From the NCBI GenBank assembly GCA_946887075.1, contig CAMPKA010000011.1, forward strand, positions 1-64,000: DNA of 64,000 nt. The letters run 5' to 3'. The notes under the pieces were generated by a model, which ran no database searches, was not told the origin of the DNA, and saw only the letters and a program-made list of their open reading frames with translations. Shown here one piece after another: positions 17,412-20,467 of the stretch; position 1 is the stretch's first letter, and each line of letters begins with the position of its first letter. Position numbers and translations under genes: made by a program. Source of the stretch: an uncultured Salinimicrobium sp. (GTDB lineage: Bacteria; Bacteroidota; Bacteroidia; Flavobacteriales; Flavobacteriaceae).

Positions 17412-18752
17412 TTAGATCTGCAATCCCTGAAACTTTCGGAAGGCGTCTACGATCCTGCTGTCGGTCATGGAAGAAATATAGCTGCAGATACGGATCAGGC
17501 AATCATAATCGGGTAGTCCTTCAAATTCCTGGTAACCCGGAATCATTCTCAGGACAAGGCGGTCATAGTTCGTTCTGGTGCCATTCCGGGGAAGTAGGGC
17601 CGTGGTATAAGTTTCCAGAAGGTGAGCCAGCATTTGGTAACCCGCGATTTCTTTGCTGATCACCTCATCGCTTTGATAGATTTTTTCTACACTGATTTTG
17701 ATGATGTCGGATACCTGAGCCTCGTATTTGCTTTTATCAAAAAGGGCATGGTGGTACTGACCGCGGAGAATGGCTTCCTCATTGTCAAGGAAAGTTTCAA
17801 CCGCTTCCGAGATTAAGGTATTTATGGCAAGTGCTCTGAGATAACTTAGCCGGTCTTCTCGGGTTTTCAGCTCCCGATATTTCGAAGCATTGATGGAACT
17901 CTTGACCAGGTTGATTAGATATTCCAGGGCATACTCCTCCTGAATAAGCCCCAGATTGATCCCATCTTCAAAATCTATGATGGTATAGCAGATGTCGTCA
18001 GCCGCCTCTACCAGAAAAGCAAGAGGATGTCGGCAAAAAGCCATTTTCCCATCCCGGGCAATTGGCAGCAGCCCGAGCTCCTCGGCGACTTCAGAGAAAA
18101 CCGCCTTTTCCGTCTGAAAAATTCCGAATTTCTTATCCCCAATCTTCGGGGTAGGTCTGGCCGGTAAAGATTCTTTGGGATATTTGATGAAGGCTCCCAG
18201 AGTAGCGTAGGAGAGCCGCAATCCTCCCGGGATACCCGGTCGGCTTTCAGTGAGAATGCGAAAACCGTTGGCATTCCCCTCAAATTTGACCAGGTCTTCA
18301 TATTCTTCAGCAGTAAGCCTTCCTCTGAACCTTTGTCCCGCTCCATGACTGAAAAATTCCCCTATAGCTTTTTCACCAGAATGCCCGAATGGGGGATTTC
18401 CAATATCATGAGCCAGTGCGGCTGCAGCCACGATGGCGCCAAAATCATTCATCTGGTAACCAAAGGTACTCTGGAGGTAGGGATGTCGTTCCAGAAGCTT
18501 CTGGCCTGCGAGGCGACCCAGAGAGCGTCCGACGACAGATACCTCCAGGCTATGTGTCAGACGGGTATGAACAAAATCAGTTTTGGAAAGCGGTATTACC
18601 TGGGTTTTATCCTGAAGGCTTCTGAATGCACTTGAGAATATGATCCGATCATAGTCTACCTCGAATCCGAGACGGGTCTCATTCTGCTCCTTGCGGATTC
18701 TTTTATTGGTGTCCCCTGATCTTTTCAAAGAAAGGAGCTGCTCCCAGTTCAT
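17412..18752 (-). CDS. dgt: Deoxyguanosinetriphosphate triphosphohydrolase-like dNTPase
   Basis: This HD-domain enzyme releases tripolyphosphate from dGTP or other dNTPs and so lowers dNTP pools. Family hallmarks are RIIFSSAFRSLQDKTQV, HTRLTHSLEVS (first metal His), AALAHDIGNPPFGHSGE (the HD pair) and a later Asp in VEAADDICYTIIDFEDG. The start is taken at the ATG at 18752 (MNWEQLLSLKR), the usual beginning of Bacteroidetes homologs; earlier in-frame ATGs at 18755 and 18770 are possible. It is about 446 residues, normal for the group. Directly upstream on the same strand, 55 nt away, is a ribonucleotide reductase R2-like gene, which makes a functional link in dNTP control attractive. Confidence 0.93.
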   Translation of the reverse strand: MNWEQLLSLKRSGDTNKRIRKEQNETRLGFEVDYDRIIFSSAFRSLQDKTQVIPLSKTDFVHTRLTHSLEVSVVGRSLGRLAGQKLLERHPYLQSTFGYQMNDFGAIVAAAALAHDIGNPPFGHSGEKAIGEFFSHGAGQRFRGRLTAEEYEDLVKFEGNANGFRILTESRPGIPGGLRLSYATLGAFIKYPKESLPARPTPKIGDKKFGIFQTEKAVFSEVAEELGLLPIARDGKMAFCRHPLAFLVEAADDICYTIIDFEDGINLGLIQEEYALEYLINLVKSSINASKYRELKTREDRLSYLRALAINTLISEAVETFLDNEEAILRGQYHHALFDKSKYEAQVSDIIKISVEKIYQSDEVISKEIAGYQMLAHLLETYTTALLPRNGTRTNYDRLVLRMIPGYQEFEGLPDYDCLIRICSYISSMTDSRIVDAFRKFQGLQI

Positions 18753-18807
18753 CATGGTATCCGATAGCATAGATTAAAGCAAATTCATATTTTGGTAAGG
18801 GAACGTT

Positions 18808-19752
18808 TTACAAATCACGATCCGTTTCTGGCTCCTTATCAGATGGGAGTACGCCAGTCTTCTTACGTAGAGCAGCAATCCTTTGCTGCGCCAGACCTGG
18901 ACTACCAGCGGGATTTTCTTCTGGAGCCGCAAAAGGATTTTCCTGATCAAAGTGACGATCAAAGCCACACGATATCAGGATTCGATCCGTGCTGAATTTG
19001 ATAAAGGCCAGGCTGCGGATTTCCTGCTGTTCTTCGCCACCCTCAGAGGGTATTTGAAGTGCTGCAATATCAAATTGGTCCAGCAAGAGCTCTTTTAAGG
19101 AATTCGGCAACAAAGGTCGGCTCAGATGGTAGTTGTAAAGGTGAAGGCAAAACTCATAAAACATCTTAAGATGCTCCATGACCCCTGTAAAGGTTTTGGC
19201 CAGACCAGGAATTTTGCTTGAGGCAGGGGAGTCCTGAAGCGGTAAAATACTGGATGTAAGGAATAGTTCCGTAAGGTTGGCATAGGTCACCAGTTTTTCC
19301 GCCAGCGGACGGCTTGAGATCTCTTTGAGGTGGGAAAGCAACTTCCGGAAAACTCCAGCCTCAGTTGTTTTTTGAAGGAAATCCATCTTGGAATTCTCTT
19401 TACACAAAGGGCTTAGGAGCAAATCATAGCTGTGAAGATGGACATTCTCCAGAGCATTCTGAAGCCCCAAAAAATACCTAGCATCCTCCAGGGTGATCTC
19501 AGCAAGCAGGACCTGGGTAAGGTGCTGGTTGATCAGCCTGTTAGCAATCGCCATCTGCGCCAGACTGCGTTTCAGGATTTCCGTCTCCTTTTGTGACAGA
19601 TCCACGGAAAGTACCGTTCGCATCCCCATATCCCTGACAGACCACTGAGAAGCTTCAAGCGCACAATATCTGTCCCAAATGTCCTGGTGTTTGTTCGGAA
19701 AGATCACGAAGCGATCCTTATTATCTCGGGAAATCGGTTCAGGCTGGCTCAT
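18808..19752 (-). CDS. Degenerate ribonucleotide reductase R2-like (ferritin-fold) protein
   Basis: This 314-residue protein is clearly homologous to class I RNR small subunits: RFVIFPNKHQDIWDRYCALEAS aligns with the RFVxFPIxHHDIWxxYKKxEAS start. ARYFLGLQNALENVHLHSYDL aligns with the FYGFQxxxENIHSETYSL helix. AEKLVTYANL, FCLHLYNYHL and NPF near the end also match. Compared with remembered flavobacterial NrdB, only E102, H105 (ligands) and Y109 (radical Tyr) are kept. The other four iron ligands are changed: D to V47, E to T161, E to L195, H to F198. It should not assemble a normal di-iron centre, so a regulatory or structural role is more likely than catalysis. It precedes dgt in a likely operon. 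Homology is confident; function is open. Confidence 0.8.
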   Translation of the reverse strand: MSQPEPISRDNKDRFVIFPNKHQDIWDRYCALEASQWSVRDMGMRTVLSVDLSQKETEILKRSLAQMAIANRLINQHLTQVLLAEITLEDARYFLGLQNALENVHLHSYDLLLSPLCKENSKMDFLQKTTEAGVFRKLLSHLKEISSRPLAEKLVTYANLTELFLTSSILPLQDSPASSKIPGLAKTFTGVMEHLKMFYEFCLHLYNYHLSRPLLPNSLKELLLDQFDIAALQIPSEGGEEQQEIRSLAFIKFSTDRILISCGFDRHFDQENPFAAPEENPAGSPGLAQQRIAALRKKTGVLPSDKEPETDRDL

Positions 19753-19879
19753 CGTTTACATTATAGATGTCGCCCACAAGGGCAGTCTAACAAATATTGC
19801 AAATCCCAAGGTGTGATAAAAGGGAATAGCCCTGGAGTTTTAACATACTTATCAACACGGAAAATCTTTCTGCCCTCTG

Positions 19880-20467
19880 TTAGCGGCGGTTCTCCAGGGA
19901 GCTTTTGTGTTTTTCTGCCACTTTCTCAAGTTCGCTGTACCAGTCCTCCCCGAATTTACGGATAAGGGCAGCCTTGACGAACTTGTAGATCGGAACCTGA
20001 AGTTCTTTTCCCAGGGTGCAGGCATCATCACAAATATACCACTGATGGTAGTTCACCGCCGCGAATTCGGAGTAATCCTGTACCCTTACCGGATAAAGAT
20101 GGCATGAGACCGGCTTCTTCCAATCCGTTTTCCCCTGATTGTACGCCTCCTCAATTGCACAAAGGGCTGTCCCTTTTTCATCGAAGGTCACATAGGCGCA
20201 ATCCGCACCGTCTATAAGAGGTGTTTCAAATTCTCCATCTTCCCCAATCACAAAAACACCCTGTTTCGCTATGGCTGCTGCTCCCTCAGGGCGTAAAAAG
20301 GGTTTCACCTGCGGATAGATCTCCTCCAGAATGGCCGTCTCGCTTTCCTCCAGGGGTGCACCTGCGTCTCCAGCAATACAACAGGCACCTTTACAGGCCG
20401 AGAGATTACAGACAAAATCCTTTTCAAGGATTTCCTCAGAAACTATGGTCTTACCGAGTTGAAACAT
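19880..20467 (-). CDS. DUF3109 cysteine-rich protein
   Basis: This 195-residue cytosolic protein has clustered cysteines: CNLSACKGACC (residues about 19-29), then CAYVTF...ALC and CHLYPVRV further on and a final CDDAC. It resembles the YkgJ-type CxxxCxxCC cluster proteins thought to bind zinc or an Fe-S centre. The function is unknown; the family is widespread in Bacteroidetes. I choose the ATG at 20467 (MFQLGKTIVSEE) because a -7 box lies 4 nt upstream; an ATG at 20677 would place that promoter inside the gene. The gene is 127 nt upstream of the R2-like gene on the same strand and could head that unit. Confidence 0.87.
   Translation of the reverse strand: MFQLGKTIVSEEILEKDFVCNLSACKGACCIAGDAGAPLEESETAILEEIYPQVKPFLRPEGAAAIAKQGVFVIGEDGEFETPLIDGADCAYVTFDEKGTALCAIEEAYNQGKTDWKKPVSCHLYPVRVQDYSEFAAVNYHQWYICDDACTLGKELQVPIYKFVKAALIRKFGEDWYSELEKVAEKHKSSLENRR

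What the first reader, a model, noticed from the sequence alone, without database searches (positions are those of the whole stretch)
18808..19752. Ribonucleotide reductase R2 homolog that has lost most di-iron ligands, next to a dNTPase gene
Sequence shows clear R2 homology along nearly the entire length, from RFVIFPNKHQDIW to NPF near the C-terminus. Aligned by eye to remembered flavobacterial NrdB, only E102, H105 and the radical-type Y109 remain. The other four ligand positions become V47, T161, L195 and F198. It lies 55 nt upstream of dgt on the same strand. A dead R2 paralog coupled to a dNTP triphosphohydrolase could act as an RNR decoy or allosteric partner that tunes dNTP pools, or bind Dgt itself. 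I know of no described system of this kind.
Basis: partly seen in the sequence, partly recalled or inferred. Interest (0 to 1): 0.78.

Follow-up and report, generated by a model that had tools for sequence, protein, structure and literature searches.

The report
Orphaned, inactive ribonucleotide reductase small subunit
A flavobacterium keeps the small subunit of a DNA-precursor enzyme whose catalytic half is missing beside it, and relatives suggest that it has lost its chemistry yet is still maintained by selection, which hints at an unknown second job.

Summary
In detail: 18808-19752(-) encodes a full-length R2 (NrdB) homolog without a usable di-iron site, directly upstream of dgt. One detail is off: the lost Asp ligand is G43, not V47. 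The gene is the in-situ descendant of the native class Ia nrdB: relatives read nrdB-nrdA-dgt here, and in the window nrdA is missing. The same state occurs in Salegentibacter, G261 and G475, probably independently. Of 15 held genomes with such a relic, none keeps the old NrdA and 13 carry a class Id-type RNR. All 16 relics have lost Glu238 (E. coli numbering) and the C-terminal Phe, and 15 have lost Tyr356, so catalysis and ordinary NrdA docking are gone. Yet the Salegentibacter relics are under purifying selection (dN/dS 0.06-0.17 in the pairs printed), and 15 of 16 relics keep the ancestral nrd promoter, worn in the window. The dgt linkage is inherited synteny, no evidence of a Dgt partnership. 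Best reading: a neofunctionalised pseudo-R2 acting by protein contacts, partner unknown. Closest known kinds are yeast Rnr4 and apicomplexan R2_e2, which keep a cognate RNR. The window's genome is not held, so its RNR complement is inferred.

The parts
18808..19752 (-). Orphan pseudo-R2: in-situ descendant of class Ia nrdB; 314 aa; lost ligands G43, T161, L195, F198; retained E102, H105, Y109, W37
17412..18755 (-). dgt, dNTP triphosphohydrolase (NCBIfam PRK01096 440.2 bits, cut-off 439); start MMNWEQLL at 18755/18752 (an in-frame ATG also at 18770)
19837..19857 (-). Worn copy of the ancestral nrd promoter motif TGTTGAAAACTTTGTTGAAAA (16 of 21)
   Evidence: in 6 of 8 searched genomes the motif (up to 2 mismatches) occurs once, by position at the nrdB or relic start
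19789..19798 (-). Second promoter block AATATTTGTT (10 of 10), 38 nt after the motif, as in canonical nrdB promoters that have the motif (38-39 nt)
18756..18807 (-). Gap between pseudo-R2 and dgt; nrdA (about 2.45 kb) lies at this place in relatives with the intact operon
19880..20467 (-). DUF3109 gene (start at the conserved MFQLGKTIV), upstream synteny marker shared with the intact nrdB-nrdA-dgt loci

Best explanation
The gene is what remains of the native class Ia RNR operon nrdB-nrdA-dgt. Steps SHOWN in held relatives: a class Id-type RNR is present, in some genomes alongside the intact class Ia genes; in others class Ia nrdA is gone while nrdB stays in place upstream of dgt; that nrdB has lost metal ligands, the radical-transfer Tyr (15 of 16) and the end of the R1-docking tail; in Salegentibacter it stays full length under purifying selection; 15 of 16 relics, the window's included, keep the ancestral nrd promoter. 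Steps INFERRED: the window's own genome went the same way; the substitutions at the metal site (to Lys or to hydrophobic or small residues) let the fold stand without metal; the protein is now a metal-free R2-fold scaffold or regulator that acts by protein-protein contact through its retained body and N-terminal segment, not by catalysis and not by ordinary tail docking on NrdA. The partner is unknown. The first candidates are the probably co-transcribed Dgt and, by dimerising, another R2.
For: Synteny: in Salinimicrobium and Christiangramia DUF3109...nrdB-nrdA-dgt is intact; in the window, Salegentibacter, G261 and G475 the R2-like gene takes nrdB's place and nrdA is absent. No other RNR gene was found in the 64-kb window with five RNR queries. 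Recurrence: 13 of 15 Salegentibacter-genus genomes have the relic, 13 of 13 directly upstream of dgt; plus G261 and G475. Independence: G261 is sister to G417, which has the intact operon (100/99); the window is sister to Salinimicrobium (100/99); G475 groups with a canonical Gillisia (100/99); fewest state changes 6 with 20 of 27 rows labelled. Cognate NrdA (725-741 bits where present) is absent from all 15 relic genomes. Class Id identity: 545.7 bits of the G006 R2 to 6CWO and 1041 bits of the G005 NrdA to 6DQW. Dead: E238 lost 16/16, Y356 15/16, C-terminal F 16/16, E204 15/16. Selection: Salegentibacter relic dN/dS 0.061-0.174 against dgt 0.006-0.050 and class Id R2 0.004-0.028, in the 45 of 78 pairs printed (some of the 45 lack class Id R2, namely those with G019 or G021). 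Promoter: kept at 13 of 13 Salegentibacter relics (17-21 of 21), G475 (20 of 21) and the window (16 of 21 plus 10 of 10 at the same spacing).
Against: No partner or activity is shown. The relic is dispensable: two of 15 Salegentibacter-genus genomes lack it (G008, G014), G010 has only a class Id-type R2, and the six Zunongwangia-genus genomes gave no match to the relic profile; G008 and Zunongwangia atlantica keep dgt (L011, L013). In G077 only about the first 27 codons of an nrdB are left after DUF3109, with a stop, so full decay also happens. G261 has lost the promoter motif and the tail; its nrdB differs from G417's by dN 0.23 and dS 2.2 while dgt of the same pair has dS 0.51, so its constraint is unclear, and recombination at this locus, which would weaken its independence, is not excluded. 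G019 and G021 show no class Id RNR, only an NrdJ-type hit, perhaps from incomplete assembly. The dN/dS test covers Salegentibacter only; for the window dS is saturated.
Confidence: 0.6

Rival explanations
1. A decaying leftover with no present function: nrdA was deleted first and nrdB is on its way out.
For: Absent from G008, G014 and the Zunongwangia-genus genomes; a 27-codon remnant with a stop in G077; G261 lost promoter and tail; relic dN/dS is several times that of dgt.
Against: dN/dS 0.06-0.17 among 13 Salegentibacter-genus genomes, in the 45 of 78 pairs printed; all 16 relics are full-length ORFs (305-320 aa); neutral simulations never kept the ORF open even at 65% identity (0 of 200); promoter kept in 15 of 16 relics.
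Confidence: 0.17
2. One reading: a decoy or allosteric partner that docks on NrdA and tunes RNR.
For: Conserved R2 fold; penultimate Asp of the tail kept in 14 of 16 relics.
Against: Cognate NrdA absent from all 15 held relic genomes; terminal Phe lost 16 of 16; the class Id R2 tail (..SITADDLF) is of another kind.
Confidence: 0.07
3. Rnr4-like ligand-less partner that heterodimerises with the class Id R2 and helps its maturation.
For: Rnr4 precedent (PMC3824934, section 22); 13 of 15 relic genomes have a class Id-type R2.
Against: The two R2s are of different subclasses; G019 and G021 show no class Id R2; genomes with a class Id-type R2 but no relic exist (G008, G010, G014).
Confidence: 0.07
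4. The nrdB remnant is kept only because its promoter drives dgt; the protein is irrelevant.
For: Promoter kept upstream of relic plus dgt; only 52-55 nt to dgt in the window.
Against: Purifying selection at amino-acid level needs a protein; relic and dgt are 202-331 nt apart in the 12 Salegentibacter loci measured, room for a promoter of dgt's own.
Confidence: 0.06
5. A still catalytic, metal-free R2 like class Ie, with Lys in place of a metal.
For: E238->K in 14 of 16 relics; [quoted passage not shown]
Against: Window has Leu there; Tyr356, said to be conserved in all class I RNRs characterised to date (same paper, passages), is lost in 15 of 16; no cognate NrdA in held relic genomes.
Confidence: 0.02

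Closest known systems
Yeast Rnr4 (Y4), the non-canonical beta' subunit of class Ia RNR
   Different: Rnr4 works with cognate Rnr2 in an alpha2-beta-beta' enzyme; the relics of held genomes have outlived their cognate NrdA and are the in-situ class Ia nrdB itself, not a duplicate beside it.
Apicomplexan R2_e2 (PfR4)
   Same: Fast-evolving intact non-canonical R2; the C-terminal radical-transfer Tyr is not conserved (PMC3824934 sections 17 and 22).
   Different: R2_e2 mostly keeps the iron ligands and a conserved C-terminal motif, and PfR4 binds R1 and R2; the relics lose ligands and the tail's Phe.
Class Ie R2 (metal-free)
   Same: Carboxylate ligands replaced; Lys at E238 in 14 of 16 relics (that class Ie's Lys sits at this position is recalled).
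   Different: Class Ie keeps a working radical; relics lose Tyr356 (15 of 16) and the partner; the window has Leu, not Lys.
Canonical flavobacterial (eukaryote-like) class Ia NrdB
   Same: Direct ancestor: same locus, promoter and N-terminal block RFVIFPxKHxDIW.
   Different: Catalytic and docking features invariant in 51 canonical sequences (one D-to-E in the tail apart) are partly or wholly lost.

Membership tests
Class I RNR R2 (NrdB), catalytic | R2 fold and sequence homology | tested here: met
Class I RNR R2 (NrdB), catalytic | six di-metal ligands (2 His, 4 carboxylates) | tested here: not met
   window G43, E102, H105, T161, L195, F198
Class I RNR R2 (NrdB), catalytic | radical-transfer residues W48, D237, Y356 (E. 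coli numbering) | tested here: not met
   window W37 kept, H194 and L295
Class I RNR R2 (NrdB), catalytic | C-terminal R1-docking tail (..DADF) | tested here: not met
   window ends ..DRDL; terminal Phe 0 of 16 relics, 51 of 51 canonical
Class I RNR R2 (NrdB), catalytic | cognate NrdA in the same genome | tested here: inconclusive
   none in the 64-kb window and none in the 15 held relic genomes; the window's own genome is not held
Rnr4 / R2_e2 type beta' subunit | lacks residues for the metal centre yet keeps R2 fold (Rnr4) | tested here: met
Rnr4 / R2_e2 type beta' subunit | coexists with a canonical R2 of the same subclass | tested here: not met
   0 of 15 held relic genomes; not testable for the window's genome
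Rnr4 / R2_e2 type beta' subunit | forms a heterodimer with another R2 | not testable with these tools
   needs biochemistry
Class Ie R2 | Lys at the E238 position with Tyr356 kept | tested here: not met
   window L195 and L295
Class Ie R2 | NrdI partner | not tested
   not searched
R2lox | Val-Tyr cross-link residues | not tested
   not examined; PF00268 and class Ia-type R2s were the best matches

The most novel reading that the evidence does not exclude
Pseudo-R2 and Dgt form a dNTP-limiting defence module. After the host moved to class Id and class II RNRs, a metal-free class Ia-type R2 could no longer poison the host but could still form dead mixed dimers with the class Ia NrdB that flavobacterial phages bring along, while Dgt drains dNTPs. 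Such NrdBs exist: Tenacibaculum phages pT24 and Larrie carry NrdBs 78-80% identical to the Salinimicrobium one. This would explain retention after loss of the cognate enzyme, the continued coupling to Dgt, and loss of tail and metal with the R2 body kept. Nothing here tests it directly; PADLOC has no match for the pseudo-R2, and Dgt matches its dGTPase model.
Probability: 0.07. Interest if true: 0.88.

Novelty: new variant of a known kind. Interest (0 to 1): 0.62.

Why it matters
RNR is essential and its parts are thought to work only together. Here the radical-generating subunit appears to have outlived its catalytic partner in at least four lineages (if the intact operon is never regained in place); in the one lineage with enough genomes to test (Salegentibacter) it is maintained by selection as a dead enzyme. 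That makes the question whether an R2 fold can have a role outside RNR directly testable in named bacterial species (Salegentibacter, probably Antarcticibacterium flavum). It also gives a natural series of stages: intact class Ia, class Ia plus class Id, orphan nrdB with four of six ligands left (G261), long-diverged pseudo-R2 (Salegentibacter, window), and loss (G077 remnant, Zunongwangia). In the one relic genome examined for it (G005), none of the three RNR proteins scanned carries an ATP-cone, whereas a class Ia NrdA of the lost type (G009) has one, so loss of overall dATP feedback may be part of the story.

Tried and rejected
Paralog beside canonical nrdB: rejected for the relatives. Phage or mobile origin: PHROGs gave no match; a viral-contig scan with the relic alignment gave one contig with an ordinary nrdB-nrdA pair. 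Chance or misassembly: unlikely. A single shared relic clade in the gene tree: neither shown nor rejected, AU p 0.47, long branches (G475 not in that tree); independence rests on species placement. P0002, the only other hit, is a canonical NrdB start fused to a SusD-like stretch on a 1.1-kb contig, taken as an assembly chimera. L098 (G008), counted at first as a second R2, is a partial class Id copy and was dropped from relic counts; L085 was dropped (contig end). Four family genomes with a single R2 of 176-180 bits (G148, G254, G337, G406) and a contig-end piece (G101) were seen but not read. G434, divergent, has nrdA beside it. An orientation error was mended. The second AlphaFold run, on the shallower alignment, gave much the same helices. 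Papers: PMC3824934 passages and sections 17 and 22; PMC8463856, PMC4245953 and PMC5794259 passages; others only as search listings. Searches for prior reports showed in their listings no orphan bacterial pseudo-R2; the library lacks most subscription papers. Residue numbers of mouse and E. coli R2 and the role of the terminal Phe are partly recalled; the columns are.

Full report

ANATOMY OF THE LOSS. One search compares 16 relics (window, 13 Salegentibacter, G261, G475) with 51 canonical flavobacterial NrdBs. The columns looked at are invariant in the canonical set apart from one D-to-E at the penultimate residue. In the relics (order: window / 13 Salegentibacter / G261 / G475): Asp84 is G / D in 9, I in 3, N in 1 / D / D; Glu115 is E in all 16; His118 is H in 13 and Y in 3; Tyr122 is Y in 12 and F in 4; Glu204 is T / K in 10, N in 3 / E / K; Glu238 is L / K in 13 / K / L; His241 is F / H in 13 / Q / H; Tyr356 survives in 1 of 16; the terminal Phe in 0 of 16; Trp48 in 16 of 16. 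The six-ligand metal site is incomplete in all 16. Negative charges of the carboxylate positions are removed or partly balanced by Lys; that this lets the protein fold without metal is my inference.

WHERE IT COMES FROM. In Salinimicrobium nanhaiense (L001) and Christiangramia (L012 and others) the order is DUF3109 ... nrdB - nrdA - dgt on one strand. Of the 80 loci, 73 hold more than 4.5 kb upstream of dgt; 25 of these have an R2 homolog upstream on the same strand: 20 also have nrdA, though not always next to dgt; the other 5 are Salegentibacter, with a divergent R2 directly before dgt. Three further loci have a partial nrdA at the locus end. The window has the same flanks with nrdA missing. 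So the dgt linkage is older than the loss and is not evidence of a partnership.

HOW OFTEN. The genus of S. salarius (15 genomes) has the relic in 13, all 13 directly upstream of dgt (12 measured by script, the 13th read). G261, close to Salinimicrobium, has one with four of six ligands; G475, taken to be Antarcticibacterium flavum, has another. In 397 sampled genomes of the family, 376 had an R2 over the cut-off. In the Gillisia genus 12 of 16 genomes had canonical scores (342-352 bits), G475 280, two pieces cut short, one none. The six Zunongwangia-genus genomes gave no match to the relic profile (no positive control among them); G010, searched with PF00268, had only a class Id-type R2. G077 keeps only a remnant of about 27 nrdB codons with a stop after DUF3109.

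INDEPENDENCE. A four-protein tree (27 rows, some with gaps) puts the window next to Salinimicrobium (100/99), G261 next to G417 inside that group (100/99), and G475 with a canonical Gillisia (100/99). G417 and L001 have the intact operon. The fewest changes of state (intact, relic, none) is 6, with 20 of 27 rows labelled. If the intact operon is not regained in place, at least four separate orphanings follow: window lineage, G261, G475 and Salegentibacter. A doubt: nrdB of G261 and G417 differ by dS 2.2 but dgt by 0.51, so faster change or recombination at the locus is possible. The NrdB tree itself cannot decide (window branch 6 changes per site; AU p 0.47).

WHAT REPLACED IT. The other R2 of relic genomes (tested: G006) scores 545.7 bits to 6CWO; the sister entries 6CWP and 6CWQ are given as class Id in PMC8463856 (passages). 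The 558-aa NrdA of G005 scores 1041 bits to 6DQW. Of 15 relic genomes 13 have an R2 of this score class (228-239 bits); G019 and G021 (3.3 and 2.0 Mb) show none and may be incomplete. All 15 have a large RNR hit of the NrdJ type (that of G005 is over the NrdJ_Z cut-off). None of the 15 has the old NrdA, which scores 725-741 bits in the six intact genomes that showed it. G028, G417 and G418 hold both enzymes, a plausible intermediate. A cobalamin riboswitch precedes the class Id genes in 5 of 6 loci tested.

IS IT ALIVE? Nei-Gojobori dN/dS among Salegentibacter relics, in the 45 of 78 pairs printed (smallest dgt dS), is 0.061-0.174, against 0.006-0.050 for dgt and 0.004-0.028 for class Id R2 (absent for pairs with G019 or G021). 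Many dS values exceed 1 and are rough, but the eight pairs with relic dS under 0.7 agree (0.090-0.164). The N-terminal block (columns 21-40) averages 99% column identity among ten species, columns 281-319 about 73%. Neutral simulation never kept the frame open (0 of 200 at 65, 45 and 30% identity), but it is crude: no indels, near-even base choice. For G261 the constraint is unclear; for the window dS is saturated.

PROMOTER. Most canonical nrdB starts near this clade carry TGTTGAAAACTTTGTTGAAAA and, 38-39 nt on, AATATTTGTT. With up to 2 mismatches the motif occurs once in 6 of 8 genomes (none in the reversed control), and by contig position it sits at the nrdB or relic start; G261 and Zunongwangia G010 have none. 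It is kept at 13 of 13 Salegentibacter relics (17-21 of 21), at G475 (20) and, worn, at the window (16 of 21 plus the second block 10 of 10 at 38 nt); G261 has 14 of 21, the level of chance. Against generality: 6 of 18 canonical upstreams shown also have only 13-14 (L052, L053, L066, L073, L156, L157). Among 850 overlapping 300-nt pieces of the window only 2 match as well as the relic's upstream, and as pieces overlap both may be the site itself.

MECHANISM. Shown: origin, loss of chemistry, loss of the ordinary docking end, selection on protein in one genus, promoter kept in most relics. Inferred: a metal-free R2-fold scaffold working by contact. I rate no single partner above one in four. 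Dgt is the natural first test because the two genes are probably co-transcribed; phage NrdB is the boldest.

KNOWN KINDS. Yeast Rnr4 and apicomplexan R2_e2 are non-canonical R2s thought to complement a cognate R1/R2 pair (PMC3824934 sections 17 and 22). The flavobacterial pseudo-R2 resembles them in lost chemistry but fails the coexistence feature in the 15 held genomes, so I call it a new variant of a known kind. On checking I moved the confidence from 0.62 to 0.60 and that of decay from 0.15 to 0.17, for the G077 remnant and the dS mismatch at G261.

Noticed in passing
L087, L091, L105, L187, L188: Cobalamin riboswitches (RF00174 or RF01689; 5 of 6 loci tested, not L222) lie upstream of the class Id-type nrdB genes of Salegentibacter and Salinimicrobium relatives, which also have an NrdJ-type RNR.
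   Followed up: partly
L208:5300-5650 and nrdB upstreams of other loci: A 21-nt direct-repeat-like motif TGTTGAAAACTTTGTTGAAAA marks the class Ia nrdB (or relic) start once per genome in 6 of 8 genomes; it may be a replication-linked (DnaA-box-like) or sigma-factor site.
   Followed up: partly
L098 (G008, Salegentibacter sp. oa5): A partial second copy of the class Id-type R2 with stops near the start of the chromosome record; possibly a circularisation overlap or a duplication.
   Followed up: no
L176:6551-6720 (G077): Remnant of about 27 nrdB codons with a stop, just after DUF3109, in a genome whose only R2 over the cut-off lies elsewhere.
   Followed up: partly
P0002 (192 aa, 1.1-kb contig): Canonical NrdB N-terminus fused to a SusD-like stretch; probably an assembly chimera.
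   Followed up: no
Tenacibaculum phages ON950054.1, LC168164.1; L232: Flavobacterial phages carry class Ia nrdB (78-80% identical to the Salinimicrobium protein), and a viral contig carries a related nrdB-nrdA pair.
   Followed up: partly
G005 RNR genes (L090, L120, L137): None of the three RNR proteins scanned has a Pfam ATP-cone, whereas class Ia NrdA of Christiangramia (L114, G009) has one.
   Followed up: partly
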